Below, piece by piece: positions 1,581-39,854 of a stretch of DNA of 64,000 nt. The DNA is taken from contig NC_090287.1 of NCBI RefSeq assembly GCF_037392515.1, positions 14,311,001 through 14,375,000 on the forward strand, read 5' to 3'. This DNA is from Haliotis asinina (lineage: Eukaryota; Mollusca; Gastropoda; Lepetellida; Haliotidae). Position 1 is the first letter of the stretch. Each line of letters opens with the position of its first letter. The position numbers and the translations under genes are program-made. Under the pieces are notes generated by a model that did not search any database, was not told where the DNA came from, and worked only from the letters and a program-made list of their open reading frames with translations.

Positions 1581-1984
1581 CTTGCGACGATATAGGCCCT
1601 AATACCACCAACAACAGTTATCAGGCTCCGAAGTTAGCCATTATTCACTTTCATCAGTTTAGATCTTAGTCGTGAATTACGGTCAGGTTTCGTTGTTGGA
1701 GTAACGCACACACCCATATTTTGTGTCTTTGGTTGTCTTCTTTCATTTGCTGCTTCGCATCGAGAGCATGTCCTCCAAAATTAAGACTTCTATTTATATG
1801 ACCAATGACACAATATGGGAGTGATGGGAAATATTCTTGTGACTTTATTGAGGTACATTAAATATCACATTGCTATGAATCATCCACTTTGAGTTTACTT
1901 TCAACGGGATATTGGTTTAAATGGTGTACAGCAGATGTGCTGGACCTGTCAATGTTCTCCATTAAAACGCTACTTGCTTTTCAG

Positions 1985-11816: not shown

Positions 11817-12722
11817 TCAAAAAGTAGCCAGTCTGACTATATTCTCTATGGCTAATGTTTGAAAAGCTTCCATATCATTTTCAAGAAATGATTTGCAAAG
11901 TAATACACAAAATTTCACAAATGGGTAATGTGGCTAATGAGATAATAGTCATCACAACACATTGGGGTGGAATATTTCTAAGAAATATTGCAGAAAATTA
12001 TAAATGATCTCTTGTGTGGTACCTTTTGCAGAATGGTATGCACTCAGATATCATATAAATTGTGTTCACTATAGTATTGGATGATTTCCCGCCATAATCA
12101 ACAGTCAGGCATGTGGATTGCTTGATTTAGATTTACACAGGGTTTATTGGATTTTTTAAGAACACCCCCATTTAAATCTTTCAAAAACGTTGTGTCCAGA
12201 TATTCAAGCTGGCACAGTTTATGATATATGGAGAGGTGACATTTGTGTGGCCATTCAGTATTCAGTTTGAACCCCTGGCATCATGCATGAATAAGTGAAA
12301 AAAGTTATGTATTTATTTAAGATTACATCAGCTGAAAGGGGTGGGTGGGCTGTGTCTCCAAAACAAGCTCTTTCAACAAACATGAACAGGGGAGTCACTT
12401 AAACAAGCAGTATTTTCATTCCAAACTGAATTTTTTATGCACTTAAAAATATCAAAGTTTGATTATAGCAATTATCTCAAACATAAAAAATGCTTCTTGC
12501 ATATTTTGTCTCCTGAAGTCTATGATGCATTAAATTAGATTTTGTATTTTGGAGGGGTACAAACTGGGGATCATGAGTCAAACAAACTGGGGATCATGAG
12601 TCAAACAAACTGGGGATCATGAGACTGGAACAATACCAAATCAATTTGCTTGAGGTTGACAGATAATATGTATTTGTATCATTTTCTAGGTGAGGCCGAC
12701 TACTCCTTAGTCAACCCTTGTA
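11817..12722. mobile_element. Possible mariner-type remnant
   Basis: ACGAGGGTTGGTCAAAAAGTA at about 11817 resembles mariner terminal inverted repeats. A weakly similar sequence occurs inverted near 12695-12722 (ACAAGGGTTGACTAAGGAGTA on the minus strand). The roughly 900 bp between show no transposase frame, so this would be an eroded or internally deleted copy. The pairing of ends is uncertain. Confidence 0.25.
12561..12625 (+). repeat. 23-bp tandem repeat, about 2.8 copies
   Basis: The unit AAACTGGGGATCATGAGTCA plus AAC starts at 12561, 12584 and 12607. The copies are essentially identical, so the expansion is recent. It lies just downstream of the EF-hand gene's distal exon, possibly in its 3' UTR. 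Confidence 0.85.
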
Positions 12723-12766: not shown

Positions 12767-13488
12767 CTAAGGAGCTTGATTTTGAGTTGGTATATTTTCA
12801 CCCCTGTGAGTTTGCACTGGTTGCACACGGACTTGTTCTAAAGGAATTTGCTGCTGTTGATGCTGCTGATCCAATGAAACATATTCTTGCTGCTGCTGTT
12901 GATGTTGCTGTTGTTGTTGCTGTTGATCCACTGAACCTTGTTGCTGCTGCTGTTGCCCAGCTGTACCTGCTTGCTGCTGTTGTTGTTCAAGTGAACCTGG
13001 TTGTTGCTGCTGCTGTTGCTGCTCCCTAGAACCAAGCTGCTGCTGCTGTTGTTCAAGCAAAGCTTGTTGTTGCTGCTGCTGTTGCTGCTGCTGTTGTTCA
13101 AGCAAAGCTTGTTGTTGCTGCTGCTGTTGCTGCTGCTCCACTGACCCTTCTTGTTGCTGTGCGTGTTGTGGCTGTGACAGATGCTGATCTTGAGTCAGCT
13201 GTGCCTGAAACTGCTGCTCATTCTGCAGATGCTGTTGCTGTTGCTGTTGCTGTTGGTCAACAACTTCCTGCTTGGATTGGTCCTGTGGCACATGGACTTG
13301 CTGCTGTACATTTCCAGATGGAGCATTTAGTTCAGCTTCATGCTTGGCTCTCCTCTGGACAGTAACAAACTCCACATACTCTACATAACCATCCTTGTCC
13401 AAGTCATCATCATCCAAGACAGAATCCACAATCCTTGCAATTTCATCATCAGTAATTTTCCGTTTACCGACAGTCTCCGTTTCATCCT
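12767..13488 (-). CDS. Terminal exon C: EF-hand 2 plus long polyglutamine tail
   Basis: The exon follows TATTTTTCAG and starts with two nucleotides (AG), fitting the phase-1 donor of exon 2. It encodes KRKITDDEIARIVDSVL, then the complete loop DLDKDGYVEYVE, then about 190 residues dominated by Gln tracts broken by LEQ, SLEQ, SVDQ and His. It ends IPTQNQAP-stop at 12769-12767. The tract is a CAG/CAA mixture on the coding strand, so it is a bona fide amino-acid-level repeat as well as a DNA repeat. AATAAA motifs on the coding strand at 12317-12312 and 12148-12143 could end its transcript. Confidence 0.85.
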
Positions 13489-16400
13489 CTGAAAAATACG
13501 TAAGAAATACAGTAAAGTTACTTTCCATGACATTTCTTTAGAACTAGTGAGAAATTGGTTCATCACTGATACAATGGATGACAGATAGTACACAAGCGAA
13601 AACTAAACACTGAACAAATGCCATCCAACATTTAGAACAGACCATTGAAAACAAGAGGCTGGATATCTTTCAGGGAAATTTGCCTTGGGTATGTATTAAA
13701 ATCCAGCTAAGATATTCCTTCATGGTTGCTGTAGTGAAATGTTAAGGGAAGTGAAAGGATAAACACTGTTTAGAAGGATATTCTCAGTATTATATAGGAC
13801 TTCCTGGAATTGACACAAAAATCATTTTGAAACTGCCAGGCAAGACTATACAGCTATTGAAAATGAAGACACTTGTTTTCTCCCATTTCAACTATCATCT
13901 GTAGTCCGACATGATCTCTAACAGTTGTATATTTTTGGTTTTCATCAATATTGACGAGTGAATTAATCCTTATCTCAGCTAATCACAGAGGAAAACTACA
14001 GCAAATATAACACAGCTATTTTTCAGCGTTACATCCCTTGAGTAAGTATAAGTATTGTCCACAAGGCCTCTGAACTACAAGAGTGGTTCCATCAATATGG
14101 CAAAGATATCATTGCATAGCAATAGCAATATACTGCAAAAAAGACAGTAACACATGAACACATCAATAATTAACAGATGATGTAATAAAGAATTGATTTT
14201 TCACTACCTTTATATTTTAGTCAAAATGCACAAACCAAAAAATGGTTATGCCAAACAAAATTTGTTGATGGCTTGTAGTTTGTTGTAACTGTAGTTTATT
14301 GCATCAGCAGTAGAAACCTGCCTATGAAGATGTATTCATTATGCAAATTATGGCAATGCACAGCCCTATAAAAGACACAACAAAACCTTTGGTAAAAATG
14401 TGTCATCATAATCATGGGAACTTGTTTTAGAAATGTTGGGTAAAATGTCACATAACACTCACAGTGTTCACAGTAAGATTTGTAAGTGAGTGCAGAAACA
14501 AAATTATAAATATGTAGTCCAGATCTTTTTGATGTGAAATTTTTATTACTATCCTGAATCATTTCAAAATTACTTGGGTGTTTTTCATGTGTTTCTGTCT
14601 TAAGGTGCTTTTTAAAATTACGTAGATGAGAATCTATCCGTCCAAAACATGCATGCAAAATATTTATACTTTGTGTGTTTTCATCATTATGGCATGAAAA
14701 ATGCTGGTTTCTGCATTAACGAGAACACTCGACCAAGAATGGGTACATAACCACCTCACTGCATCAATTCTGAAGTGTTTTAGGCTAAACAACAAATTTA
14801 TCATAATTCACACTTTGTTGGATGGTAAGGCTAGTGAATATGGTTTTATGTTACTTTTAGAAATATTCCAGCAATGTCACTATGGAATACACCAGAATGT
14901 GCTTCAGACATTGTGCCCAGGCAGAGAATCAAACCCTGGTCTTCAGAATGACAGGTGGAAGCTTAACCAGTCAGGCTACCACACCGATGATGAGGATGGA
15001 TAACAAAGCTGAAAAATGCACCGGGGAATCTCCTGAATACATTTCTTCCTCACTGTACAATATTCAGAGTTTGTGGCATAAAGGTTCATGATGATTTAAA
15101 ATACCCAGTACCCCTACCCCATAGCATCATGTCCATGAGTTCACAAATGAGCTTCCATTTCATTCCAAGGCGGTTAAAAATAACATTTTGATAATGATAA
15201 CATGACTAGATGTTGAGTCAACATTTTAATCACCAAATATGACAATTGTAACTTTTAAAAATAGATTTCTAAAAGTCTGAGATGCAAAGCATGTTATAGT
15301 GAAACCCAATCTCAAAGACAAACAATCCTCGTACTAACTGATGATGAAAATGCATATAAAGTAACTTAATCATGTCAAAAAACTTTAACCTTATATGTAT
15401 AGTATCTTCAGTTGTGTTTACAAAAGACACCAGCTGGGGTAAAATACCTCCACGTACATAATAATAGTACCTATTCTTACAAGAACAAATAAAACAACAT
15501 AAAACAAATGACATGACTAAAGCCTTCCCATGAGAGCCTCACTGGTAGCAAGAATTAAATATAGATATATATGATTATTTACAATCATTGACAATATTAA
15601 GTATTCAAAAATGGAATGTTATTAGGTCCACTGACATGTACATTTTGACTGATATCAGTAGACTGACTTTGGCACCAAACTGACTGTTGACTTGACTTTG
15701 AATGAGACATAACATTCATAATACATGTATCTGTAAAAAAACAAAGTTAGGATATTTTCAGTGATACTTTCCGTTGCAAAGGACCCTAGTATTGTGATCT
15801 ACTGTCAGGAGTTGTGATCTATAGCCTGTGTTTATATTGTATGGTATTGATAAGTGATATAATCCAAAAATTAAAGGTTAGTTTCAAATTTGTTTGTCAT
15901 ATCCCAGTGGATTTACTGTAATTTGTTGACATGTTTTATTATCTTAAAGTATGTATCATATATGCTTGAAGTATATATTCTGAAAATGGCCGAAATATTG
16001 CTGACATGACAAGTAAATTTCAATTCACTGTTGTAAAGACTGAGCATGCAATTTCACAACAATATGCCCCCAAATATACATGATTCTTAACCCTTTAACA
16101 TCCAAGAACAGTTCCCAGCATATATACCATGAAACATGTAAGTTGTGTCTGTACAAGCAGTAAAACAATGAATTTGCTGTTTGTTGTTTTTTAATTCAGA
16201 AAACCCAAAATGTACAGTAGAAAATCTACTTTGGAGTAAAACTTGAAAAATACATTTCACTTTTGCACCAAATTATTCTTTTCAAAATAATAAGACCATA
16301 ACCCCATAAACTCAAATAATGGGTACCTTACTAAATGATTACAAAAAAATAATGTTTTGGAATATCAGATACGTATGATAAAATATTCATAATGAAGATT

Positions 16401-19400
16401 ACATAAATATATGGATGTCTCTGTTTGACATGTGCAGAATACGGAACAACATAGTACACACCATATGAACTGGCTGTATCATTCTAAAAGTGAATATAGG
16501 CTCAATAAAGGAAGACATTCATTGCCAGTAAACAACCAGCCTCATTTCACGTGAAAACGAATATTCCTTTGGCCATTAACACAAACCAGCAGTGACAATC
16601 ATGTACAAATGAGTCTGGATTCCAAATACTTCATTTCTAAATTTGTGGCAATGATATCGATCATGTGAAGCTTCATTACATGTATTCAAAACAAAGCAAT
16701 GATATACTACTGCTATTTATGTGTGCATGTTTGTAGAGTTTGGGGCAGACAAGGTCTCTTGGTCTTTATGGTAGGATTGTAACTTTGTGCTAAAAAGAAA
16801 CTATCAAAATCACAATCAGGTTATCCAAACTGCATGCAAATGTCATACTTCTGTCATATATAAACCCATCAACGACTTAACGTGGGCACAGACTTTTAAG
16901 CTGATAATACCTTAATACTCTAGACATATCAAAACATGGAGACACCAGAAATGGACTCCGATCTACCGATGCCACGAATCAAACCTGCATCTTCAGCATG
17001 TGGAACCTATACTGAAACCATTGGACTACTTCACAGCTACCCCAAACTCTCCTTACTTCAAACAGCTTTGGTTCTGGATTGTTTGATTTACATTCTTTCA
17101 CAATAAACAAAAGAACAAAATATTGCCTGACCGCCTTTTCCTGGGATACTGTAAGTTCAAAATGGGTCCGAGAAATTTGATGCCTGCTTCTATGGTATAT
17201 CAAAGTATGACAAAGCAACAAATATATATATGACCTAACCTGGATGCTGCTACTACTGGACATTACACTACAACTACCAGATCTGTACACTTTTGATTAC
17301 ATTTTTGATTGTTGCCCTCCTGTCTATGTAAGTTCAATGTGCACAGAATCCACTACAGAGGCATCTAACATATACTGCACTACATGTTACTCATTCATAC
17401 CATAGTTATTACCATGATGCAGTAGGGACATCTGTCATGGAAAGATCATTCATGTATCATAAATAATACAAGCAGCAAAACCTTTTCCCTATTCATATGA
17501 ATTAGCTGCTATAAGGTAATAAATAACTATATGCTTCCATAACTGTATTGTTAGTATCTGTGTTGGTAAATAATGCATATGAGCTTATTACAAACAATTT
17601 ATCTGTGTCACTGTGTTGGGGACAATGGAAAGGTTTGAAACTTAGTAAAGTACGGAGGGGCTTCATGAATCAAATCAATATATTGTTTTTACTTCATTTT
17701 CTTTTTCAACAACCTTAAAACCACACATTGACCATGTTTCCTGTTACAACTAATGTTACCACACTTCTGACCTTTGAATACCTGACCCACATTAAGGTTT
17801 TATTGCTACTCAACAATGCTATTGGCATTGCTAAATTAATTCCCTTCAATAGTATAAATAGTTTACTAACACTTACAATAGGATTAACTCTTCACAGTGA
17901 AACATTTATGAAATGTCCTCTTTGATGGACAAGAGTTGAGATCTTCCACAAATGCTACCATGAAGGAAGTAAAAGCATCTAAAACAGCTGTGTAAAGACA
18001 CACATAAACATAACAAGAGAGCAGTATCAGAATCTAACAACAACTGTGACGATATCAACAGTGAAAGGCACATACAATCAACATTTCAAAGTCTGGCACT
18101 CATGCACACTGTCTCCACATTTGCGAAAAATTACATCACAAAACTTCCAACACCTGGCCCACACAACAAACCATTCCAAACAGTGTTCATTCAGCAAATC
18201 AATGTGAATCATGAATTATCCATTCACTACAGGTAAACTGTCACAATGCATTCATGAATTATCCATTTATTACAGGTGAACTGTCAATTGCATGTCAAAC
18301 ATAGAACTAAAGTGCAGTGATCTTAATGTTCTTCTTATGTCATACTCATTGCATGCTATCTTCCTGTATAAAATCATAATGATATCACATAAATATATCA
18401 GATACATTTAACTGTTTCACAACATCTTGATATAAGATAAAATGCAATTTCAGCCGAGAATGTTTCCATTTTCACAAATCTGTTTCATTTCAAATATCCA
18501 TATGACAGATATCATAACATAGCAAATAAACTTGATAATGAGAATCAGGATAACAACGTGAGGGTCATCTCTGAATGTATTGTGTTTGGTGTTTCATTCT
18601 GCTGTCTGCAACAACCCAGTTGTCATGACAGCAGACTTGCAATCCACTGACATTCTCTTAGATCTACATCATCAGTTAAGATGACATAACATCAAATGAG
18701 TCGTGCTGTCTGACCACTAGATCCATTTAGCAACCTTTTTTCACTTATTCTCTGCCAGAACCTACAGTTTATGCCCTAGGAAGACCAGTTTTCTTATGAG
18801 GTGCAACTACATGACAACAAGCCCACTACCCACAAAACCATGGAGATCTGTAGCACCTTCTTGACAGTGCGCATCCTGGTGGAATCACCAGAAGTATACA
18901 GAGAACACAAACAAAGGAAGAATGACAATCAGATACACAGGGTGTCCCACACTTAAGGAGTTAGTGTCTTGAATTTAGTTCTATTTTAAACAGAATGAGC
19001 ACACAAAAACCCTGTTAATCGAGCATGTGACTTCTTAATGAGACAGTGTCTTGGATTTAATGATATTTTAAAAGGTATCACTACAATGGCACACTGCTAA
19101 TCCAGTATGTGACTTCTTTATGATATAGTGTCTTCGGTTTAATTCTATTTTAAAAAATATCAACTTGAACTTTGCAATTCCCAACTGTGACTTATTTATG
19201 AATACCAACCTAATAAGCACAGCAGACTCAGTCCCTTACACTACACAGGCCTTCAAGAAGACTTTGAATGCATAACCAACAGGTCCTTGAAGAGCATCCA
19301 ACCAAGCATAGCATTTAGCTGTGCTTAGCATCACTGAGCCATATGTGACCCTGGGTTAAAGAAGGTGCACACACAAATATTTCTGTTACAGTGGAGAAAA

Positions 19401-22400
19401 GTGGACTTGACATGATGAACATGAAGGAAACAAGAACTTCCGACTAAAAGATCAAAGCTTAACACATAAAAATGTTTGATTCAAATATATAAAGATCCAT
19501 GACACAATTTACCATCAGTATGAGAATATTGGCAAACTATGACATGACCTTGAAATTTGAACATGAGAAATATGAATTTAATACTGAAGCTTATAATCAA
19601 TTCATCCCTGACACTGTCTGGAAATGTGTATGTTTCTGAAGAATGCTGTACAACACTACAGGCTTTCTCGATTTATTCATCCTTCCTTTGTTGGTTATTC
19701 TCTATCATTTACAAAGGATCAATCTCAGTCATTCAAATTCATCAACAAATCTCAAAAGCTCATTTACTCAAGGACTCAAACTTCAGAAAATAATATGCAT
19801 GCAAAACATTTAAACCTTCTGATAAACAACACACTAACCCAAATTAACACATGCATAAATTTGTATGCCCAAACATTAATAAACAACAATGGAAAGTATC
19901 TAAGTGTCCTGGTAGACAATATGCACAAATCTTTCATCAAGGTCATACAAAAAACACACAGTACCTGACCTTGTTAGAAAACCTTGACCTTGGACAACTT
20001 AAAGAGTGTCATCTGTATTTTATTAGAAAAGTAATCTCAAGTATCATATTCACATCTTTGAAAAAAAAAAGTTCGCGAGTTGGGTTTACTGTCACTTTGA
20101 ACAGTATTCAGGCTCATGGCATGCCAGTCTAATACAGGAGAAAAGCCTGTACTGATGATGTTCATAGACATTAACCAATGTGCTGAAACCTAGAACCATA
20201 ACTGGGCTAACCTGGATGCAAACCCAGAATTAGGGGTTTCTGGTATGCCCCATATATGCAACTCCACATTGCTGCACCTTAAATGACTGGACCTCTCATA
20301 CATACTGATGATTTAGGAAGCATTTCAACTACTTAAGACAAGTTAACTTTGGAAGATACCATGGATGCAATCCAAATGACAGCATTGGAATTATCAGGAT
20401 TTTCTTGATCAAACATTGAAATGGTGAATAACAAATATGGCAACAATTCCATGAATGGCTGATACCACAGTGATAGTACATACAAAGACTCAATACCAGA
20501 GAACAACAATCCATTACAATTAAATGCCAAAACTGATTCCACTAGGATTCCACTATGCACAATAGTGGCGAAAGTTTTCATGAGAGGATAATATACAATC
20601 GGTGATGACACCAGGTGTTCATTTACAATAATCACCATCAGACACAATTTATTATAAAAAGACAATTTTGAAAGTAATACTTATTCAAATATTAAAGTAA
20701 TCAAGACCATTACTACATAAAATATGAACAGGGCACAAAATAGAGCATATTACACGCAACATTTTTTTCCCACATGTAGAGAATTTCCCAAAACCACAGG
20801 AGAAAATATGTCAGATACTTCCTTACTGAAAGAATTCCACAACTTCTTAAAAACAACCATACCTCAAGAATGACTAATGTATTTCAAGTAATACATGCTT
20901 GATGAAAATAAGGAACTACTGTGTCCTAACTTGATTCATTTATCAAAAATATTTTACTGATTTTTACATGTCATCAGTTCCAGGGAATTTCTCTTTGCCA
21001 GCATTATTCCAGGATGACTTTCCTTACCAATCGAACAATCTTTCAAAGTCAATATTCATTAGTTTGGCATTAGGTGTCATACACAGAGAATACTAAACTA
21101 TGTCCCGTGTAATACCAGTGAATAGTTTGGTATCTAAGAAGTGAAAGCGAGTTCGATACCGAAACCATTCACGAGTTTCATAGATATGGTGTTACAAGGG
21201 ACATAGTTTCGTATTTTATTTATTACTCCCCCAACATTAGCAAAATAATATTGAGCAAATTACTTATTTCCTTAGAATTCAATGAGTGTGGTGACACTCA
21301 GCTTTCCACGAGTCAAGCAAGGTCTAATACTATTGTGACAGAGGTTTTAGAATTGTGACGTCATAACTGTGACACATTTTGACGTCATAAGCGTCACAAT
21401 GTGCAATAACTTTGTAAAATTATTGAACAGTGATATCTTCAACAGGTGAGTAATAAATAATCTCTAGCAAATATAATCTCCACAATCTGCCAAATCTCCC
21501 AACAATCAAGTACAACACACAAACAATACACAAAAATATCCATACAAGTCTGGTCTGTTGAAATCCTTCCACATAAATCAAAACTACTTTCAGATGCTGT
21601 TACAGCTTTTGAATTGAAATAACCAAATAACATTGTATAAATTATATTTGAAGAATCTTTCCAAGAAACTGTGTCGAACTCAAACAGTATTTGTAACAAA
21701 GATGATTGTCCAACTGTTGATTATTGCTGTGGAGGTTGTGTGGGTGGGGCCTTCTGCTTTTCCTTATCCTGGGCACGTTTAAATTCAGCATACTCAATGT
21801 ACCCATCCCCATTCATATCATTTTCTTTCAGAACAACATCAACGATATTGGAAATTTCATCATCAGAGAAGATTTTCACTTCTGGTGGAGGTGCTGAGCT
21901 GTCCTTGCTGCTTTGTTCTGAAAGAAACCAATAAAATGCTGTCAGGTGGAGCTTCACTGGCCACAACTCCTCGTTCAAACTTTAAACGAGAGTCATCTAC
22001 TCTTCATCTTTAATCTCAATCCGATAACTTAAAATTGGAATCAGAATCGGAGCTTTCAACAATTCCATTACTATTTTCAAGGAAGCCTTTGTCAAATAGA
22101 CAAAAGACCTTAAATATCTATCCATGGATATTACAATAAAATCTATAAACATTTTAAAAACATGAATGTCCGATCTATCATTATCATGATCTGACTTCAT
22201 TTTGATTGACCAATATTTTACCACATTCTTTCTCTATCCTTCAGAAAAGAGCCATTATGATGAAGTATTTTCAGTCAGATCAAGATAGCATATGAGTTTC
22301 TTCCTATGTGGTGTTACTGTATCCTCTCATGTATTTTCATTACCAAGGTCCAGCCATCTGATGCCCTGGGATTTCAGTAAAAATAATGTGTTCACTAAAT

Positions 22401-25400
22401 TACTTAAAGAGTAATTTTTGCCTTGGGTTTTAACCCCCGATAAAATTATCAGCGTGATATCCTGAAGAAATATGGTGAAGAAGAGAAAAAGAACTGTTTA
22501 GCTGCTTTCAAAGAAGAGAATTATCTATCCTGAAGTCAAAAAAGTTTAGAAAACAAATATTCATAGCTAGCAAAAATGGCAACTTCTCACAGAATATCAA
22601 ATAGTTGGACCTGTGTTTCCAGATTTGAGTGTCTTTCTAGAAGTTGTTGGTATAAAGATGACAAAGCTTTATGGATGATCAACTTTTTATATTCACAAGA
22701 GCAACATTTTGGATGGCTTCTGACACTGTTTTCAAGCACATAGATCATCCATAAAGTTTTGTCATCACTATTTGATATGATCTAACATGGTCTACCTAAC
22801 AACATACATGGAACTGGACGATCCATCAGCACTTAACAGTGACACATACAACAACTGGTAACACACAAAACAATGGGTGGATACAGTAACCACAGTTAGG
22901 GTTGATCCCAAAAGCATTCTTTGATGCACAGATGGCATAGCACGAAGCTTCCAAACAGAAAGGACTAAGAAAGTAAAACCACTTGGCAGCTGCCAGCATG
23001 CACATGCTTACTGCATCTAGAATCCTCATGAAACTTATCAGTCAAAATGCTGAAACAAGAATTGTTGCCAGTGTAGTTGCAAACGTGGAGGATCCCACTC
23101 AGGGAAAAGAGATGGACATTCCATTTCTTTATAGACTTGATGACATTTTGTCATTGTCTGTCATGCTCGGATGTTAATAACAATTTGGGTTACAAGTGGA
23201 CAAAAAGGAAATCCCTCTCTTTTCAAATCCTGGATCCACCTCCGTTGCTCATACAAAATGCCAACATTATAAGTATATAGCTAAAATAAACATACTATGT
23301 ACTTTGAAAGTATGATTAGCACAATAGTGCTAGAACAAAATACATAATGACAATACTAAAACTACAAAGATCAATTTGAGATAGGATTAGGAATGAAAGC
23401 TTATGATTTAGGATTGAATCTGGTCAAAACAGAGTATCTATCTAATATTTATTTCACCACCACCAGAAACCAGCTGATATTACCCACTTGCACTAACCTC
23501 ACAACTTGCAGGACGTGTTAACGGGTCATGTAATCCACATGCACCATACATTAAACATATAATGTCAGTTTCTATTAACAATAACAATTTTAAAAAAGTG
23601 AGTGAGTTCAGTTTTATGCCACTTTTAGCAATATTCCAGCAATATCATGCCAGCGGACATGAGCAATGAGCTTCCTACACTGAACCAATGTGGAGACTAG
23701 AATCCAGGTCTTGGACATGACAAGTAAACCACTCAGCTACCCAATCTCCTTTTGTAAATAGTAACAGCACAGAAATTTGACATGGTGCTATAACATGCTT
23801 TAAGGGGAAGTAAACAGAAAGAAACACAAAGACATTGGTATCTACATTGACCTGGAGTTAAGTGTTTGTGATATCCATAGTATTGCATCTCACAAAGTTA
23901 CACCATTTGAACCTGAATTGTGGTGAAATTTTAAAGGCAACAACCAGTTTGGTCACCAAAATAATTAATGTATGCTATTCAGCCACACTAAGACACATCG
24001 TTAATATGAACTCTGTGTTACTGAAGCTGTAAAATGCCTGTGACATTCTGTAAGAACGCCAAGTACAACTTTGTGGTGTTTCTTTGTCAATTACAATAGT
24101 TACAAACCGAATGATATGAAAACAATACTAGTATTTGTAAATATATGTTTATTAGCAGAAACTCACAAATATCATCTAACACATAAGAAACACCCATTCA
24201 TCCGTAACAACCATACCTTCCATATATTATACCATAAATTGTCACACTGGTCATAATTAACACAATTAAATATACTACTGCATCCTAAACATGTACCACT
24301 AATACGCTTTACCCATTATAATAGCATGTTTAATTTCAAAGAATTCTATGTAACCATCATCATTAAGATCTGGTTGTAAACCATGGTCAATAACAGCGGC
24401 TAACTCTTCATCAGATAAAACCTTGATTGGGCCAGACTTAGCATTATGTTCTGAAAGTTGAGAAAGAAGGCTTCTTATCAGAAATGAGAAATATGAAACT
24501 CTGTTGAAAGTGATTCAAAGAGAAAGAAACTGAAAAATAGAATGATATGACATACAGAACATACAGTGGAGTCTTCAAGACTGTCACTGAAGTTTGAGAC
24601 ATAGGACATCACACAAGACAAGACTTGACACATGCAAAGTTGCACAAAGACACAATCCTCCACACAAAACATAGGCATACACTGTTACCAAGGTAAAGAA
24701 CGACAATGCAACACTCCCACTTGGCGACAATGCGACAACCTATAATTAAACGACCAGATATTCTGTTCATCTTGATTTTATATATCAAAAGATAAAAAAT
24801 TCAGAAAAATATAATCAATATTTAAAGTGTTTGAAATGCTGATTTGGTCATAAAATATACATTTACTGGTTGTTGCTGTGGTTTAGAAATACCTCACTCA
24901 GTGCAAAACACAAAGTATTTGATATTCTTTATGAGGCATACCATTTTGTAAGGAGACCTGATATTTTTTCAGATACATGTAAATATTTCTTGTACAAAAA
25001 TCACCTTGCAACAATTTACTTTTTAAGGCAAAATATCTTTTTCACCAATTTTCATCAATTATAACTTAGCCATGACAGGCTTTCTTTGCAAATACAAGCG
25101 ACAAAACTCTTTCCATATTCACTAGGAAACGTCGTCCAAAGCAGTGCTATATGTTGCATAACCACATATTTTCCTATAATTCAGTTTCCTGGCCCTTTCT
25201 GATCCCAAGGTACTGTCATCTACTACTATTGTGTACATGCAAAGTCCTTGTGTACCTGGTGATCAAATTATGCATCAACAATCCTCCCAAACACTTCCAA
25301 CATGTCCCTAGCACCTACTTACAACTGAACATGTGTATCACAAGGTTGCTTATCTGAACATAGTTTATCCAAGCAGTAAAGCTGTTAACATATAGTAGAA

Positions 25401-28400: not shown

Positions 28401-31400
28401 CAGGCACAGGCTGTAGACAACAATGGTTCAGTGCAGGAGATATGAGACCCACATCTTCACAGGACATGCACAAAGCTCTGAACCTACTCCACCATGGCAT
28501 ACAACACAGCCAAGTCAGAATGTTTCTTTTGGTGATAAACAAACTGCAGACAATGCTGGCAATAACAATGTGAGCTGAATCTCTGTGAGCACACAATGTA
28601 AAGGATTATTGTAATGCTACACGTATTTAATCTGAGCTACTGAATGAACAATGCTATGACACATGCTTGCACGTCTTCCTTGAGATCAGCAGTAGGACTG
28701 GTTTTACTTATTGCTAACTGTATAAGATTTATTAATGCAATCTAGCCCTAACTATCATGATTATACTTAATAGCAATACACAAAACTGTTACTTTCAAAC
28801 TTAACATTATTTTCAACAAATCAAACAATTAATAAGTCTCATGGTTTAGAAAAAATGTTCCAATATTATATTTTCTAAACATGAAGAACAAATAACAGAA
28901 ATATTTATGAATTCTAAGTTCACGTTGTGTAAGTAATAAAATAGCAAGATGATTACAATAGTTTGATAAAACATATTTCCATGAACTTGAAATCTAGGTG
29001 GCGCTATCACCTCATGCCAAGATACAAACTGACATTCCTTTTGAAAATCAGTCACAAACAACAGTGCCTGTCAAATATTATCTGACGTTGAGACAAACTG
29101 CAGACACACATTTATATAGTTAAGCCTTGAATATCTGAAAATACCTACAGGTATTAAAACCTCAATATCACAGTGTCTGTAGCCTTCAAACAGTTCCCTA
29201 AATTGAAAGTGACACTGTCATTAGTTACAGCTAGTATGCTTAAGATCCGTATGGCCCTAGGCTACTGACTAGATATTGACGACCTATTGACAACCTCTGT
29301 TGCTTTCATTTTCAACAGCGTCACAGTGATGGTACTACCGGCCAAGACACTGAGTCTATCTTTCTGTTTAAACTGTTAGCTTCCTTAAAATAAATAAAAA
29401 CATCTTACACAGCGTACACTGACAAATAATTAGCACAGTAGGTAGGTTATGAAGTTAGGTTTGTTATAATTAATGATACATGTCATGTTTTCCTTTAATG
29501 ATATTAAATGCTCAAGGTGAATTTAGAATGGCTTGAATTGTTACTTGATATTTTGATGTCCACAGTATGAATATAATTTCAATAAAGCATACTTTCCACT
29601 GTAATTAACTAAAAAATATTCAGAAAATTATCACTGCCATATAGCTCTTATACATATATTGATTAGCATTAAGCAATCGATTAATACATATAAAAAATTA
29701 ATCTGTCATGAAAGTATGTCAAATAAGTCATGCTAAATCACTGTATCTCATCTGTACATCATTGTACATGAAGCCTTAATCTTCAGACAATCACAGGTAA
29801 CAGTCCTCTTTTTCTGCCAAAATACTGTGGACAACCACAGAAATATAAAACAGGGAATGAAAAAGTGTTAGCTACTTCAAACTGCAGTTCTGTATCAATT
29901 ACACATAGAACCACTGTATATTGTAAGCATTTTGTCCAATGCAAAACAGTTTTTCATTTTTTTTCACGTCCCATCTCTCGAGCTCAAACTTGTAATAAGA
30001 TCTTTTCTTCAGGATCTGTGTGATTTATTTTCAAACTTCTAATTTTGATGACTCATTTGTTCCAGATGTTCATGGTTAGTTCAGAAACTAACTTTTCAAC
30101 ATATTTTATGATGCTTGAAAAAAGATGTCTCACTGATTAAAGTCAAATATATTCTTATGAATGGTCTCTCTATGTTTCATAAACTCATTTTGATGACTCA
30201 TTTGTTCCAGATGTTCATGGTTAGTTCAGAAACTAACTTTTCAACATATTTTATGATGCTTGAAAAAAGATGTCTCACTGATTAAAGTCAAATATATTCT
30301 TATAAATGGTATCTCTATGTTTGATAAAAAGTATTGATACCTTGAAATGACATTAATATGATTTCATTAGGTCAATACTATTTGTTCTTAAAATTATATT
30401 TCTATTTGGAGGTGCTGTATGACATTGAGCATGATCATTCAATATATCCCAGTCAGTTAGTGAGGTAATAATGTTTTATTGCAGTGTATGAAATAAGACT
30501 CGTCCGAACGCCTGAGATGGGCTAGATTTCTGATGGACAGATGATCTTGTAAAATTTTGGTTTAATAAATTTTGAAGTTACAAGCCCTGATGTCCAACTG
30601 GTTTTTTGGTGTATTTCCTACACTGTTTAAAACCAACCCAGCTACTTCTGGTGAGAGAGGTCATATTTGGAGTTATACCATCTCAGTTAAGTAAAGATTC
30701 TAGTGCTTTTGCAGGTCGAGTCACATTCAGGATTCGTGACAAGCTGTCAGAAAAGGGCTAATAATCAGCATGCAAAGCCAATGATCTAACTCAATCTGGC
30801 ACAGAATCTTCCTCAAAAAGGAGGTTTAACAATAGTGCTAGACTCTGTACCTTACAAAAGAAGCACAGTCCCTAATATATGAAATCTTGACTTGTGATCA
30901 CTTCTTTTTGTGTGAGGCTGCTTGTAGAAGTCCAGATTTATGCTGGCTTTATAGCACTAGCTCACCAATATACCCTGCCTCTACCTCAGAGTTCTGACAA
31001 CATGCCAAACTATCCTTGTTTTTAATCCATCAATGCAGAGATCCAGCAGGGATATACCATCTTGTAATGTCTATCATTATCCATAAACCTACAACTCTCT
31101 GGGCAGACACTACAGCCACTACACAACAGTGTTAGTTCCAGATATTGTAGCCACCCTTGTATCATCCAATGATTCTCATGGCAAGTACTAGGTACTGGGG
31201 TACTTTTCTTCTGAGAATACCCCCATTGAAAGAGGGGATCAGGATTTAAATTATCAGCCAAGCCTCACTCATGATTGTGATGATATCAAACTTCAACTTT
31301 AATAAGACTTTGCTCTAAATCTTAAAGCACAAAAACAATAACATTCACAATCATTAAGGTCCTGTATCTCTAATGTGAGCGAGTTTTACTTTTATCCTGC

Positions 31401-34400: not shown

Positions 34401-37400
34401 GAGTTCATGGGAAAGCAAAGCCTATCTGAGCAATAATGTTGCAATTAAAGATGTTGACATCAAGAATGTCAACATAGCCTTTTGTGAATCTGAAATTCAC
34501 ATCCTTCCCAGAATATCAATACTGTCCACATATTAACACATACTGTAAATTTGTCTGGAGTTTAACTTCTTGTCAACATGTCTCAGTACTAAATAAACTA
34601 TCTTGCTGATGGAGCTTCCTGAACACAAACCAATATGTAAGACCTAAATCTATATGTAAAACATACCTGCATGGTAGTGTGTAAGGGCCTTGCCGATCTC
34701 TACTCCATCCAACTTGTTATTGTTATCGTAGTCATGCATCTTAAAGTAATGGAACTCAAGTTCTTCTTCTGTCATCTGTTCTTTGGGTTTGGCTTCAATA
34801 ACATTCTCAAGATGTTCCATGACATGCCTGCAAAGAAGGACCAATCACTAATAGAAATAATGGTTGTTTAACGTAACTGAGAAAATGTGCTGCTATTAGA
34901 AATCAGTCTGTAAATGAGTATGGATTAGACCAATCAATTACTGGCATAAGTCTAACTGAATGGGATTAAATTACATACAACCGAAAAAGTCAACTCCTAC
35001 ATTAAGCATGGGTTTGGCAATAAACTATTCTAACCTGCAGTTTAACAAGGCCGATGAAACTGATGAAAAACACCAGTAGTGCATTTGTTTTATGATAGAA
35101 TATATACTGACACAACCACATTGTGAAGTGTTGGTCTTCTCATTTGTGAAATACACATCCTTTAAGCTAAAATATGAATGATAAGATTTAAGGGGCTGTT
35201 CATAATCTATGGTTAGGGTGTGATGATGATTTTAAAAGAGGTAGGTGTGTCACTCATTTACTCATTTTGTTCTGGAGAGGTAGGGAGCAGAATTCAGTTT
35301 AGTACACATGTATGGAGGGGAGAAGAGAGCAGGGGGAGGAGGGATGGAGGGAGGAGAAAGGCGGTGCAAAAGGGGGTGCAGAAGGGGGGAGGGGGTGAAA
35401 AGAGGGATCATGATTTTTTGTACATAAAAAATATTTAAAGATTATGCTTAAAAATCATTGGAGGGTGAGGGCGGTGGGCGGTGATTTAGTACACAACATG
35501 CAGGGTTGTTACTTACTTCGTACATATATTTTAGCCCTGCATCATTCACAATGTACATGCGTCTCCATAAAAGTCATCGTCATTCCCATTGCCAAGAATT
35601 ATGAATGGCCTCTAACCCGTTAACAACCCTGGTTGGGAATATTATCAGAAACCTTTTGGTTGCTGACTTGGGGCCAAGTAGTAGCCTGTGAGCATGTCAT
35701 GGACTTCATCAGTTTGATTAGGAAAAGTGTTATTTTTTTTAATTTGTATTCATTTTAAGTTGACACTTTCCTTAATCAAGAAGTAGTTTTACTCTTGTAT
35801 AATACAATACAAAATTGGAAAAATAAACAAAAGAACATCTTCTTTTTTAACAGTTATAAGTGAAATACTGTTTCAGTAACCTGTCTCAAGAAAATAATCC
35901 CATTTCAGTCCAACTATTATATCATTAACATGATCAACATAACATTTGTGATTGTGCAAGGGTATGCGTAACCTTGCCAACTATGTCATCATGCCCTTAC
36001 GGTGTGGCTCACTGAGTATACAGCTGACAACTGGAAAGCTGGCCCAGAATCAATTATCATTATGTTGGAATATGCCCATCTGGGATGCCAAGGAAAACTG
36101 AAACCATTCATTCACCTCATATTTCCAAAAATGGACAACTTGTCAACCTATACATGAAATAATCTTACGCCAGTGCCATGCATCAAATACAAGACTTAAT
36201 ATACCTATGCTGAGGTGGAGAAAGTGATCAATAACCCAACAATGTTCACAGAAAGGTCAGAAAAGTCTGATGTTTTAACCATTTGTTAACCAACTAGTGT
36301 TCAGCTGCTCTCACACCTGTGATAGGTTACTGGGGTCATTTTTCCCATTTAATTCCCAAAAGACATGGCAAAGAAATGTCACAAAAATTGGTTGACAAAA
36401 TATTTCACAAAACTCTAGGTTTTACTCCTTGTTTCCAAAGTCTCTATGTTACAGTCAGTTTGTGAAATCAGTCATTTCATGAAATGATAAAAAATTTCAG
36501 TCATTTGATAAAATCACTTACACGGTCAGCCATTTAGCACCATTTTGTGTAAAAACAATAAATATGATTCAGTCGTTTCATGAAATATCACTTCATAACT
36601 GAATCTACAAAAGTGGATCACAGTTTCAACATCTATAATTGTCACTAACAGTTAAACATATTGTGGCAGCAACTGTTGCACTTCAGCTTGGCTTTGAAGC
36701 ATTTATACCTGTTGGCACTTGATGTGGCCAGAGCAGCCACGATTCACAAACCCTTGTACACCACATATTGATGATATGAAATCTTATGAAATGTCTGAAT
36801 TATATCGATTGTTGATACACAAAATGATGCCAAATGGCTGACCCTGTTAGTCATTTCATAAAAAATGATTGACTTCACAAACTGAATGTAACATATACAT
36901 AACAGTTGGTTTTGTTGTTGTCTCTTAAATTGTAGACAAAAACAAATCTACTACTTAACTAGAACAAAGGCAGCAAGGGCAAATCCTCTCTACTGAGAAA
37001 CAGCATCAGAACACAGCAATATCTTTATCACATACTGAAAATATATGTGTGAGTAAGTGAGGCTTTACACTGCTTGAAGCAATATTCCAGCAATATCATG
37101 ACACCAGAAATAGGCCTCTCACACAGTTGAAAATATCCAGTGTAGTAACATCAGGTGTGATCAACAGAAACACTGCTGTTTATGTTGAAGAGGTCACTCT
37201 TACTTGCATCAAAATACTTCAGACCTTAAGCATTATTTTGAATTTCCTGCTACTAAAGTAAAATCACACAAACATTCTTCTCATGAAAACCCTACAGCAT
37301 AACAACACAATACATACTTGCAAAGAGTAGTCTGTTGGACTAATGCTTAGTCTCTGAAAATATATGATTTTGATGGAAACGAACAATTTATTTTAAATAA

Positions 37401-39854
37401 AAAAAAAGAGACCCTGAGAGAAGGTAGACTGAACCTGATGAGATCTAGACTTATTTCATTTAAATAGCTAAGACTGCACAGAAAGCTATGCACAAGAATA
37501 AAAATTGTGATTCAGAGACTGCGAGACAGATTGATTCAGTTTGTGCGCCCATGCCTCCTCATACAGACTTTCATTCAAACATCAAACATAGGAGATTTGA
37601 ACCCCAACCTTTGAAACTCCCTGGATCTGCCTATGTTTCAGTAACACAACCTATCTGGCAGTAAGATGAAAATTAAAAGCAACAAAGCAAATAAAACACA
37701 TCTAAATAGAGATTTATGAGTATTGCCAATACCTAACAATATCAGCAAATCCAAATGAGCAGATGTGACCAGATGACAAGATTGCAACATGTTAGTCTCC
37801 AATCAGTAAATATCCAGATGTTGCCATGGACACATAACTCTGAACAACAGAACAGCCATAAACTATGTTCAACCCATTTTCCTTCATAATGGATATTATT
37901 AATGACAAGCATGCATGAGCCAGATTAAAATATCTCTACAGTGATAAATGATCTGTCATCCAGTGATGTTGGTATGACATTCTGTAGTTTCAAATAATAG
38001 TGTTTGCTCTTTTCTTTTGTTAAATGTGAAAAAAGTTCAATCAGGCCCTCCTAAGTAATTGAAGGAATTACAGCAAATTTGAAGGAATTGCATCTCAAAT
38101 GTAAACAAACGCAGCCCACTCGCGAAACAATTTCAGCCATATCGGCAATTTAGCGGTAATAACTGAAACACATCGGCCATATCGGAAACAATATCGGTAA
38201 TACTTGAAACACACTCGGCCGTCTTCGGACATTTTTTGGCTCACATCCGTGATTTGTCGGTCACGAGCAGAAACTCGCGCAGCAAAACATGGCGTCGTTA
38301 GAAGAAGCACTCGTCTCGGTGAGTTTTGTTTTTAGTTCCTACTATTACATTTTTATACTTATCCATCTTTGACCACCTTTGTTGCATGTGTTTAGGTATG
38401 AGGTGTTGTTGGGGCTTTAGCTTATTTTTTTAGGAAAAGACTCACTGCAGAAGAGTGTCACAAGTCATGCCCCTGGAGGTTCAGATGTAAACACTCTTCT
38501 GCAGTGACAGATTGTTTCGCGAGTGGGCTGCGTTTGTTTACATTTGAGATGCAATTCCTTCAAATTTGCAGTAATTCCTTCAATTACTTAGGGGGGCCTG
38601 TCAATGTGAAAAAAAAATTATACGATGAATCCAATCTTCTTTTATATTTTGCGAAAAAAACAATTAACAGTATCACAGGAAATGTTCCATCACTTTTATC
38701 CTTAAAGGCACAATGCCCACATATTTTCCACAACATTTTGGCCTCTACTATATTATTGGGGCATATGCATTAACTTTAGTTTCCTGTTCATCCAATAAAG
38801 ACATACCAGTCCTTACTACTTTGCTGAAATCAATAACTGAAACTTCAAGGCAAAAAGCTTCAAAATACAGAACACTTGCGATACAATTGCTCCATACATT
38901 AAAGACTGTCAGACTCAGTGTTGTTGGTGTTTGCCAAACTGGTTTCACTCACGAGTTGTGCATAGGATAGTCATAAAGACCTCTAAAAAGGGGCATAACT
39001 CTATGGGGTTCCCTTGAAATAATGTTCAGCCGAGAGAGGGTGTGAGAGTAGATTTAATGTAACATTGCATTAATTCATTCCAACTTTTTAACTAAATACT
39101 GAAATCTAGAAGCGTAATTCTTTTATGTAATATATTATATGGCTTCCCTGAGGGTTGGTAGTTAGCATCATTGAGAGAGATGAATTATTTAGTTTCGAAA
39201 AAGTGTGGTGTGATATAGTGCCTTTAACATAAACGCAATAAGAGAAAGTATGCATGTTTTACTTGTTACCATTTAATGGTCACCCAGTATGTACATACCA
39301 CAAATCAAGGTTAATTGTACTGCCTGTGAAATTAATCATTTTGACCATTTATTTAAAGAAATATACTGTTTACCTGTTTTTGTGTAATTTCACCTCATGT
39401 ACTTACTGTAAACAAAGTAAGAAAATATGGCTTACTCAGCATTATGGATGTCTGAGCTGAACTTCATTGTGTCCCCATGGCCATGACCATGTCCACCATG
39501 GACAGGCTGTGCACCTTCCTGTGGAGGGGGCACCTGTTGCTGATTCATCTGATTAACTTGCTGCTGTTGCTGCTGTGGTGGCTGCTGCTGATATTGTTGT
39601 TGCTGTGGTGGCTGCTGCTGATATTGTTGTTGCTGTGGTGGCTGCTGCTGTTGATACTGTTGTTGTGGTGGCTGTTGATACTGCTGTTGCTGTTGCTGGG
39701 GAGGTTGCTGCTGATACTGTTGCTGTTGCTGGGGAGGTTGCTGTTGATGGTATTGCTGCTGTGGTGGGGGCACGCCTGGCGCAAACCTTTGCTCATTCAT
39801 GTGCGCATTTGCTGTTGCAGCAAGAAATGCCAAAGCAAGGAAAAGAATCTTCAT
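12767..39854 (-). CDS. Secreted Q-rich EF-hand protein, MCFD2/CGREF1-like, three alternative last exons
   Basis: Shared exons 39854-39436 and 34827-34667 join to one of three terminal exons: A (24450-24299), B (21917-21721) or C (13488-12767). Predicted proteins are 243, 258 and 433 residues. All junctions are AG/GT with matching phases (2, then 1). The protein has a signal peptide, a Gln/Pro/Tyr-rich segment, an HGHGHG stretch, then an MCFD2-like core: EHVMEHLENVIEAKP, FHYFKMHDYDNNNKLDG (EF-hand 1) and a second EF-hand supplied by the last exon. Human MCFD2 is an ER-Golgi calcium-binding partner of LMAN1; CGREF1 is a secreted relative. A cargo-receptor or extracellular (possibly shell-matrix) role is inference. 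Family assignment is firm; the exact orthologue is not. Confidence 0.88.
12840..13265 (-). repeat. CAG/CAA trinucleotide-rich tract (polyglutamine coding)
   Basis: Dense CAG/CAA repeats on the minus strand (CTG/TTG on plus), with higher-order units near 13040-13135 where a block encoding ALLEQ followed by Gln runs is duplicated. Length variation between alleles is likely. The long open frames on the opposite strand and in the other frames here are by-products of this composition. Confidence 0.85.
14834..14990 (-). repeat. tRNA-derived SINE family 2
   Basis: The shared tail motif AAATATTCCAGCAATGTCAC is followed by an ATCAAACCCTGGTCTTCAGA block (B-box region) and CTTAACCAGTCAGGCTACC (A-box region) in reversed order, so the element reads on the minus strand. 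Confidence 0.7.
16945..17050 (-). repeat. SINE family 2 fragment
   Basis: GACACCAGAAATGGACT, a GAATCAAACCTGCATCTTC block and CCATTGGACTACTTCACAGC follow the order of the tRNA-derived head of family 2 on the minus strand. The tail is lost. Confidence 0.5.
18209..18286 (+). repeat. Short direct duplication
   Basis: A 35-bp segment starting TCATGAATTATCCATT occurs at 18209 and again at 18252 with three or four differences. A local tandem duplication with a 43-bp period. Confidence 0.8.
18952..19197 (+). repeat. 82-bp tandem repeat, three diverged copies
   Basis: The landmark GTGTCTT...TTTAATTCTATTTTAAA recurs with the G of GTGTCTT at 18964, 19046 and 19128, an exact 82-bp period. The copies are diverged, so the triplication is old. 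Function unknown. Confidence 0.75.
21090..21214. repeat. MITE-like nested inverted repeat
   Basis: Outer arms 21090-21117 and 21187-21214 match inverted at 25 of 28 positions. Inner arms 21118-21134 and 21155-21172 also pair, with one small bulge. The whole 125 bp would fold into a long hairpin, typical of a small foldback DNA element. It lies about 500 bp beyond terminal exon B, near its possible polyadenylation site. Confidence 0.6.
21215..21220 (-). terminator. Candidate poly(A) signal for terminal exon B
   Basis: TTTATT on plus, which is AATAAA on the coding strand, about 500 nt after the stop. An overlapping second copy occurs at 21219-21224. Position is plausible but untested. Confidence 0.35.
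21721..21917 (-). CDS. Terminal exon B: EF-hand 2 with proline/glutamine tail
   Basis: The exon follows TTTCTTTCAG and starts with two nucleotides (AA), matching the phase-1 donor of exon 2. It encodes EQSSKDSSAPPPEVK, then FSDDEISNIVDVVL and the complete loop DMNGDGYIEYAE, and ends KQKAPPTQPPQQ-stop. It is the closest of the three to human MCFD2 around the loop (GYIxYAEF). The stop is at 21723-21721. Confidence 0.87.
23597..23745 (-). repeat. tRNA-derived SINE family 2
   Basis: GTGAGTGAGTTCAGTTTTATG and AGCAATATTCCAGCAATATC mark the tail. AGAATCCAGGTCTTGGACAT and AAACCACTCAGCTACCC mark the B and A boxes in reverse order. It reads on the minus strand. Confidence 0.75.
24148..24153 (-). terminator. 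Candidate poly(A) signal for terminal exon A
   Basis: AATAAA on the coding strand about 146 nt after the exon A stop codon, a normal distance for a short 3' UTR. If used, it makes exon A a true terminal exon. Confidence 0.45.
24299..24450 (-). CDS. Terminal exon A: EF-hand 2 with short C-terminus
   Basis: The exon follows CAACTTTCAG and starts with two nucleotides (AA), matching exon 2. It encodes EHNAKSGPIKVLSDEELAAV, then a complete loop DLNDDGYIEFFE, and ends KHAIIMGKAY-stop (24301-24299). Its length after the loop is like that of human MCFD2. An in-exon GTAAAG following ATGG lies in phase 1, so the exon could also be spliced onward in frame to B or C, giving a three-EF-hand protein. The start phase and length agree with the other two alternatives. 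Confidence 0.87.
25590..25935. promoter_or_regulatory. GC-richer intronic block, candidate conserved non-coding element
   Basis: A sharply bounded 350-bp block of balanced base composition inside AT-rich intron. It includes a homeodomain-type core (CAATAATTCAATTACC) and several near-palindromic GC motifs. A plus-strand 97-codon frame spans 25641-25934 but matches no family I know and is antisense to the host gene. It could be an enhancer or an unrecognised exon. Confidence 0.25.
26876..27012 (-). repeat. tRNA-derived SINE family 2
   Basis: GTGAGTGAGC, CAATATTCCAGCAAAATCATG, AGAAATGGGCTTAACACAG, GATTTGAACCTTGGTC and AACCACTAGGCCAC follow the reversed family-2 order. It reads on the minus strand. 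Confidence 0.75.
27660..27930. promoter_or_regulatory. GC-richer intronic block with GC-box, CCAAT and homeodomain-type sites
   Basis: The block contains GGGGCGTGGCCAATGG at about 27796, combining a KLF/SP-type box with CCAAT. AGTAATTAAAATTTAG and TTTCAATTAGAGC (TAATT cores) lie on either side. Composition differs from the flanks. No coding frame of note. Consistent with an enhancer or alternative promoter, by inference only. Confidence 0.25.
30047..30336 (+). repeat. 145-bp tandem duplication
   Basis: Units 30047-30191 and 30192-30336 are almost identical, with only a few substitutions near the 3' end. A recent head-to-tail duplication within intron 2. Confidence 0.9.
31376..31470 (-). repeat. 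SINE family 2, partial
   Basis: GTGAGCGAGTTTTACTTTTATC, CAATATTCCAGCAATATCACG and AGAAATGGGCTTAACCACTTG show the tail and part of the head in reverse order; the middle is deleted. Confidence 0.65.
32620..32760 (-). repeat. Very degenerate SINE family 1
   Basis: AATCCACTAATAGACACTATGAGC, CATGACATGCTATCAAGTCACC and CCTGACCATGTGATC follow family-1 order with heavy divergence. Called only from motif order. Confidence 0.35.
34667..34827 (-). CDS. EF-hand gene exon 2 (shared; EF-hand 1)
   Basis: Acceptor CTTCTTTGCAG and donor GTATGT; starts phase 2, ends phase 1. It encodes EHVMEHLENVIEAKPKEQMT, EEELEFHYFKMHDYDNNNKL and DGVEIGKALTHYHA, nearly collinear with human MCFD2 (EHIMEHLE... HYFKMHDYDGNN). 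The calcium loop is DYDNNNKLDGVE with acidic residues at positions 1, 3 and 12, so it should bind calcium. Confidence 0.92.
35313..35408 (+). repeat. G-rich purine tract
   Basis: Almost uninterrupted purine run with many GGG and GGGGG blocks and only a few pyrimidines. It has the sequence requirements for G-quadruplex or triplex (H-DNA) formation and lies in intron 1 of the EF-hand gene. Confidence 0.7.
36448..36892. mobile_element. MITE with long inverted repeats and TA duplication
   Basis: The left arm (from TGTTACAGTCAGTTTGTGAA) and the right arm (ending TTCACAAACTGAATGTAACA) are imperfect inverted repeats extending about 120-140 bp inward. Shared blocks include GGTCAGCCATTT and CATTTTGTGTA. 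Both ends are flanked by TA, the target duplication of Tc1/mariner-type elements. Length about 445 bp with no coding capacity. Divergence between the arms suggests moderate age. Confidence 0.65.
37048..37115 (-). repeat. SINE family 2 fragment
   Basis: GTGAGTAAGTGAGGCTTTACAC followed by CAATATTCCAGCAATATCATG and ACACCAGAAATAGGCCT: tail and middle of family 2 on the minus strand, head missing. Confidence 0.6.
38037..38605. mobile_element. Foldback element with 90-bp TIRs and a captured first-exon-like piece
   Basis: Terminal inverted repeats 38042-38131 and 38511-38600 pair at 88 of 90 positions by hand comparison. They are flanked by the direct repeat TCAAT (38037-38041 and 38601-38605). The interior contains ATGGCGTCGTTAGAAGAAGC at 38289 opening a 10-codon frame (MASLEEALVS) that ends at a consensus donor TCG|GTGAGT at 38318. 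Upstream is a duplicated roughly 41-bp motif rich in CGG. A second perfect 17-bp inverted repeat is at 38442-38458 and 38491-38507. It has no transposase. Near-identical arms imply a recent insertion or ongoing arm conversion. Superfamily unknown; a 5-bp duplication is unlike hAT or Tc1. Confidence 0.75.
39436..39854 (-). CDS. EF-hand gene exon 1 (shared; signal peptide and Q-rich region)
   Basis: The chosen start at 39854 gives MKILFLALAFLAATANA, a textbook signal peptide with likely cleavage after ANA. An in-frame ATG 27 nt upstream is less likely because a TTTCCAG acceptor lies between the two. Residues about 20-115 are Gln/Pro/Tyr repeats (QQQYQQQPPQ type), then VHGGHGHGHGDTMKFSSD. The exon ends at GCTGA|GTAAGC in phase 2, joining exon 2 to recreate the MCFD2-like HNAEHVMEHLE. 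The Q-rich insert between signal peptide and EF-hands is not present in human MCFD2. Confidence 0.88.

What the first reader, a model, noticed from the sequence alone, without database searches (positions are those of the whole stretch)
12767..39854. One EF-hand gene with three alternative terminal exons, each encoding its own second EF-hand
Exon 2 ends in phase 1. Three downstream exons (24450-24299, 21917-21721, 13488-12767) each have a good acceptor, begin with the two bases needed to complete the split codon, encode a complete canonical EF loop (DLNDDGYIEFFE, DMNGDGYIEYAE, DLDKDGYVEYVE) and end in their own stop. Joined coding lengths are 732, 777 and 1302 nt, all divisible by three. The choice would change both the calcium site and the C-terminus (short, Pro/Gln, or about 190 residues of polyglutamine). 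I know of no such arrangement in vertebrate MCFD2.
Basis: partly seen in the sequence, partly recalled or inferred. Interest (0 to 1): 0.8.

Follow-up and report, generated by a model that had tools for sequence, protein, structure and literature searches.

The report
MCFD2-like gene with three final exons
A snail-type gene for MCFD2, a small calcium-binding helper of protein export, carries three different possible final exons, each encoding its own second calcium-binding site and a different tail; it looks like a known type of alternative splicing in a gene for which we found no report of it, but no RNA was available to show that all three are used.

Summary
On the minus strand, exon 1 (39854-39436), exon 2 (34827-34667, ending in phase 1) and three candidate last exons A, B, C (24450-24299, 21917-21721, 13488-12767) join in frame to 732, 777 and 1302 nt. 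Each last exon encodes a homologous canonical second EF-hand: profiles built without the tested exon find A, B, C at E 1.6e-7, 7.3e-16, 2.8e-11, next unrelated hits E 2.1 or worse. The gene is MCFD2-like (best solved match human MCFD2, E 2.6e-29). Beyond exon 2, the only other EF1-coding exons found by MCFD2 queries belong to a separate MCFD2-like gene about 71 kb downstream. Silent sites between the three exons are near saturation while frames, loops and acceptors stay intact, so they look old and constrained. Best explanation: tandemly duplicated alternative last exons that swap EF-hand 2 and the tail while keeping the signal peptide, the zinc-lid histidines and EF-hand 1. That all three are used is not shown. 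The kind is known (alpha-actinin EF-hand exons, tropomyosin's three 3' exons). Exon A is the weakest member.

The parts
39436..39854 (-). Coding exon 1: signal peptide-like start, Pro/Gln-rich stretch, His-rich stretch; ends in phase 2 (GA|GTAAGC)
34667..34827 (-). Coding exon 2: MCFD2 N-terminal helix, EF-hand 1 and the four histidines aligned to the human zinc site; ends in phase 1 (CAG|GTATGT)
   Evidence: zinc histidines from PMC10944485
24299..24450 (-). Terminal exon A: EF-hand 2 (DLNDDGYIEFFE), short C-terminus; one residue shorter than B and C just before the loop
24148..24153 (-). AATAAA 146 nt after the stop of A (candidate polyadenylation signal)
24313..24313 (-). Last exon base of a possible weak internal donor in A (ATGG|GTAAAG), which would make A a symmetric 138-nt phase 1-1 exon
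   Evidence: score 4.07, top 10% of GTs; exon 1's donor scores 4.15
21721..21917 (-). Terminal exon B: EF-hand 2 (DMNGDGYIEYAE), short Lys then Pro/Gln tail; closest to human EF-hand 2
21219..21224 (-). AATAAA 497 nt after the stop of B (candidate polyadenylation signal)
12767..13488 (-). Terminal exon C: EF-hand 2 (DLDKDGYVEYVE) and about 190 residues of Gln-rich tail
12312..12317 (-). AATAAA 450 nt after the stop of C (candidate polyadenylation signal)

Best explanation
An MCFD2 gene with three tandemly duplicated alternative last exons. The strong donor of exon 2 is joined to one of three phase-1 acceptors, and the transcript is cleaved and polyadenylated after the chosen exon. Each product keeps the signal peptide, the Pro/Gln-rich N-terminus, the histidine cluster that binds zinc in human MCFD2, and EF-hand 1; the choice sets EF-hand 2 (its loop and both helices) and the tail (short in A, Pro/Gln in B, about 190 Gln-rich residues in C). 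As the two EF-hands together form the unit that docks on the cargo receptor ERGIC-53/LMAN1 in humans, the variants would give one receptor several soluble partners differing in docking, cargo contact or tail. Shown: exon anatomy, homology, phase match, near-saturated silent divergence with intact frames, presence of an LMAN1-like gene. Inferred: transcription, use of all three exons, docking and cargo differences.
For: In-frame joins to all three exons. Leave-one-out homology of A, B, C. MCFD2 queries against the genome found this exon 2, A, B, C and fragments of one paralogue 71 kb downstream (5 matches at E up to 1, four in this gene; 5 matches at E up to 10, three in this gene); an EF1 profile over 204 kb finds exon 2 and two exons of that paralogue, next hit E 0.46. 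A lone EF-hand 2 exon needs an EF-hand 1 partner, and exon 2 is the one upstream. Purifying pattern: dS 1.86 (A-B), 3.03 (B-C), saturated (A-C) against dN 0.43, 0.40, 0.71 over 36-37 codons. A neutral copy at 0.93 substitutions per site kept open frame, EF loop and acceptor AG together in 0.005% of 20000 simulations (simple model without indels). Positions equivalent to human D122, D129, Y135 are unchanged in all three exons; I136 is I, I, V; D129E is a patient mutation that fails to rescue (PMC9022998, passages), the other patient sites are recalled. Four zinc-site histidines, all in exon 2, conserved. An LMAN1-like exon on C13 keeps 11 of 13 residues of the MCFD2-binding peptide quoted in PMC7069976.
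Against: No transcript evidence. Exon A is most diverged, has a one-residue gap with Pro just before the loop, and scores only E 0.0031 with a human-plus-paralogue profile, so it could be less constrained or out of use. Polyadenylation signals near chance expectation; acceptors of A-C weaker than exon 2's. The splice matrix is recalled and rough. Only 36-37 codons for selection estimates, with saturated silent sites. No other mollusc genome could be compared.
Confidence: 0.76

Rival explanations
1. B (and perhaps C) is the working last exon; A is an old duplicate that is unused or decaying.
For: B is closest to human EF-hand 2 (18 of 35 residues) and A the farthest (13 of 34); A has a one-residue gap and a Pro before the loop.
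Against: A is open, keeps all loop ligands, the acceptor and the phase despite near-saturated silent sites; neutral retention is unlikely in simulation; it has the best-scoring acceptor of the three and the nearest AATAAA.
Confidence: 0.12
2. Exon A is also, or mainly, an internal exon: a donor at 24313 makes it a 138-nt phase 1-1 exon that can be spliced onward to B or C, giving an MCFD2 with three EF-hands.
For: A phase-1 donor ATGG|GTAAAG lies before A's stop, scoring 4.07, like exon 1's donor at 4.15; frame is kept.
Against: The donor lacks G at +5, about a tenth of all GTs score as well, and the paralogue's two donors score 7.0 and 11.1. A has its own stop and AATAAA.
Confidence: 0.07
3. 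A, B and C belong to two or three separate genes, each with its own first exons.
For: A separate MCFD2-like gene with its own exons does exist 71 kb downstream, so gene duplication happens here; intervals A-B (2.4 kb) and B-C (8.2 kb) could in principle hold diverged first exons.
Against: No further EF-hand 1 exon in the window or 204 kb by tblastn and profile; all three acceptors are phase 1 and fit exon 2.
Confidence: 0.05

Closest known systems
[quoted passage not shown] human, PDB 2vrg, 3a4u, 8jp4 series)
   Same: Signal peptide-like start, zinc-site histidines, two EF-hands; exon 2 aligns at about 62% to the human EF-hand 1 part.
   Different: Long Pro/Gln-rich N-terminus, three candidate EF-hand 2 exons, tails beyond the human C-terminus. 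Human MCFD2 has one EF-hand 2 exon (recalled).
Tandem duplicated exon substitution events, e.g. the three tandem duplicated 3' exons of tropomyosin TPM1/Tm1/lev-11 (PMC9741552, passages seen)
   Same: Homologous 3' exons in tandem giving alternative homologous C-termini; 77 of 236 human events are C-terminal.
   Different: Here the unit is a calcium-binding EF-hand plus a variable low-complexity tail, in a secretory-pathway protein.
ACTN1/ACTN4 alternative EF-hand exons (PMC9741552 section 10, read)
   Same: Duplicated exons swap an EF-hand part.
   Different: There only one of two versions binds calcium; here all three loops keep their ligand positions, and the exons are terminal.
MCFD2-like paralogue 71 kb downstream (C8:14252361-14250333), resembling CGREF1 (resemblance recalled)
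   Same: Last intron also phase 1, last exon encodes EF-hand 2 plus Pro/Gln-rich tail.
   Different: EF-hand 1 part is split over two exons; one terminal exon found.

Membership tests
MCFD2 | Closest sequence relative is MCFD2 across both EF-hands | tested here: met
   Exon 2 + B: MCFD2 chains are the first 4 of 23 PDB sequences, E 2.6e-29 to 1.2e-24; next calmodulin 3.7e-6
MCFD2 | EF-hand pair domain | tested here: met
   PF13499 30.9, 36.8, 39.1 bits for A, B, C forms, cut-off 30 (full A form, B form without exon 1, C form without exon 1 and with tail cut)
MCFD2 | Four zinc-site histidines (His51, 55, 99, 101) | tested here: met
MCFD2 | N-terminal signal peptide | tested here: inconclusive
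   MKILFLALAFLAATANA by eye; no predictor run
MCFD2 | Binds ERGIC-53/LMAN1 | not testable with these tools
   LMAN1-like gene present, MCFD2-binding peptide 11 of 13 conserved
Tandem duplicated alternative last exons | Neighbouring homologous exons, same phase, same strand | tested here: met
Tandem duplicated alternative last exons | Each used as the terminal exon of transcripts from the same gene | not testable with these tools
   No RNA data held

The most novel reading that the evidence does not exclude
One ER-export cofactor gene acts as a three-way splice switch: the constant half keeps the zinc lid, EF-hand 1 and receptor docking, and the terminal exon sets calcium response and cargo choice, with form C's Gln-rich tail giving a distinct secreted or scaffold role.
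Probability: 0.2. Interest if true: 0.68.

Novelty: new member of a known kind. Interest (0 to 1): 0.42.

Why it matters
How MCFD2 chooses cargo is described as unclear (PMC9022998, passage). A natural gene that keeps EF-hand 1 and the zinc site constant and offers three versions of EF-hand 2 would separate these parts' roles without designed mutants. It also bears on a disagreement in print: one review says no clear MCFD2 orthologues exist in lower eukaryotes (PMC10317151), another paper cites putative invertebrate ones (PMC7069976); this gene supports the latter.

Tried and rejected
A further hidden EF-hand 1 exon that would split A, B, C into separate genes: tblastn and profile scans of 204 kb found only exon 2 and the downstream paralogue. 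A recent duplication: 1.5-kb flanks of A, B, C share no homology except the A-B stretch that is the same DNA counted twice and one 37-nt match at 89%. Dating the duplication: B-human 18 of 35, B-C 17 of 36, A-B 16 of 35 identical, so the exons differ from each other about as much as B from human; age cannot be fixed. The loop hit at C8:14300786 was taken as chance. No sister species could be searched: the other genome collections held are of prokaryotes, viruses and plasmids.

Literature: no report of alternative MCFD2 last exons appeared in the listings (24 papers, 23 listed; 4; 11; 16, 12 listed; 4; 1; 0; 17, 10 listed; 0), 47 (9); only open-licence papers are held, and gene-annotation databases were not searchable, so automated annotation may already list such isoforms.

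Full report
What is there. The window is C8:14311001-14375000 of a 1.14-Gb genome. Egg-lysin family matches on C14 (6 matches, best E 2.9e-12) fit an abalone or close relative; that link is recalled. On the minus strand, exon 1 (39854-39436) encodes a signal peptide-like start, a Pro/Gln-rich stretch and a His-rich stretch; exon 2 (34827-34667) encodes EHVMEHLE... through EF-hand 1 and ends in phase 1. Exons A (24450-24299), B (21917-21721) and C (13488-12767) each start after CAG in the matching phase, encode a second EF-hand and end in a stop, giving 243, 258 and 433 residues.

More than chance. Leave-one-out profiles recover A, B and C at E 1.6e-7, 7.3e-16 and 2.8e-11, the next unrelated segments at 2.1 to 3.7; the reversed control gave one hit at E 8. 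A profile from human MCFD2 and the paralogue alone gives B 4.3e-13, C 1.3e-8, A 0.0031: A is the weak member. Acceptors rank in the top 1.7, 2.4 and 4.2% of AGs by a recalled matrix; AATAAA signals follow at 146, 497 and 450 nt, which chance could give.

One gene. Whole-genome searches with this protein and with human MCFD2 each gave five matches: in this gene four and three respectively, the rest being fragments of the downstream paralogue. These searches score only best candidates, so very diverged copies could be missed. In 204 kb around the gene, EF1 and EF2 profiles find exon 2, A, B, C and the paralogue's exons at E 1e-10 or better, and nothing else better than E 0.46. The paralogue (C8:14252361-14250333, same strand) has its own exons, a phase-1 last intron and a Pro/Gln-rich tail in its last exon, so 'EF-hand 2 plus tail after a phase-1 intron' looks like the ancestral terminal exon that was copied.

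Age and selection. Between A, B and C, silent sites are near or at saturation (dS 1.86, 3.03, saturated) and dN is 0.43, 0.40, 0.71 over 36-37 codons. The flanks are unalignable apart from one 37-nt match. Under a simple neutral model at half the A-B dS, frame, loop and acceptor survive together in 0.005% of 20000 trials. Few codons and saturated sites make these estimates rough.

How it would work. In human MCFD2 the EF-hand domain docks on ERGIC-53; all patient missense changes lie in the EF-hands and abolish docking (PMC10317151, passages); a zinc site of His51, 55, 99, 101 latches an N-terminal lid over the cargo site (PMC10944485, section 13 read); FVIII peptide perturbs helices 2 and 3 (PMC7069976, passages). 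All four histidines align to exon 2, and helices 2-3 fall there by my reading, while EF-hand 2 falls in the alternative exons. D122, D129 and Y135 equivalents are kept in A, B and C, I136 is I, I, V. The genome has an LMAN1-like gene whose start keeps 11 of 13 residues of the MCFD2-binding peptide. So all three forms plausibly fold and dock, and differ in EF-hand 2 surface and tail. Secretion of some forms is also possible: MCFD2 is secreted without LMAN1, and MCFD2 was reported in a cone snail's venom proteome (PMC8472973, one passage).

Novelty. Homologous tandem 3' exons are known (77 of 236 human events are C-terminal; tropomyosins have three; PMC9741552), and EF-hand exons are swapped in ACTN1/ACTN4. 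A three-way EF-hand 2 swap in MCFD2 is a new member of that kind so far as the searches named in Tried and rejected show.

Noticed in passing
L013/L015/L016, C8:14252361-14250333 minus strand: Separate MCFD2-like gene about 71 kb downstream, EF-hand 1 split over two exons, last exon with PQGYQQPP-type tail.
   Followed up: partly
window 38042-38600: Inverted repeat in intron 1: two 90-nt arms, 98% complementary, 379 nt apart; looks like a small inverted-repeat transposon.
   Followed up: partly
window 52672-53241 +: ORF start resembles TAF1_subA (PF14929, 24.7 bits, below cut-off 31.8) and runs into a 45-bp tandem repeat at 52832-53103, six copies.
   Followed up: partly
window 1862-2434 +: ORF with WFQNRRAKYRKQEKQL, by eye the end of a paired-like homeodomain; Pfam gave no family for the ORF.
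   Followed up: partly
window 30042-30328: Two tandem copies of a 145-bp unit, 97% matches, in the exon 2 to A intron.
   Followed up: no
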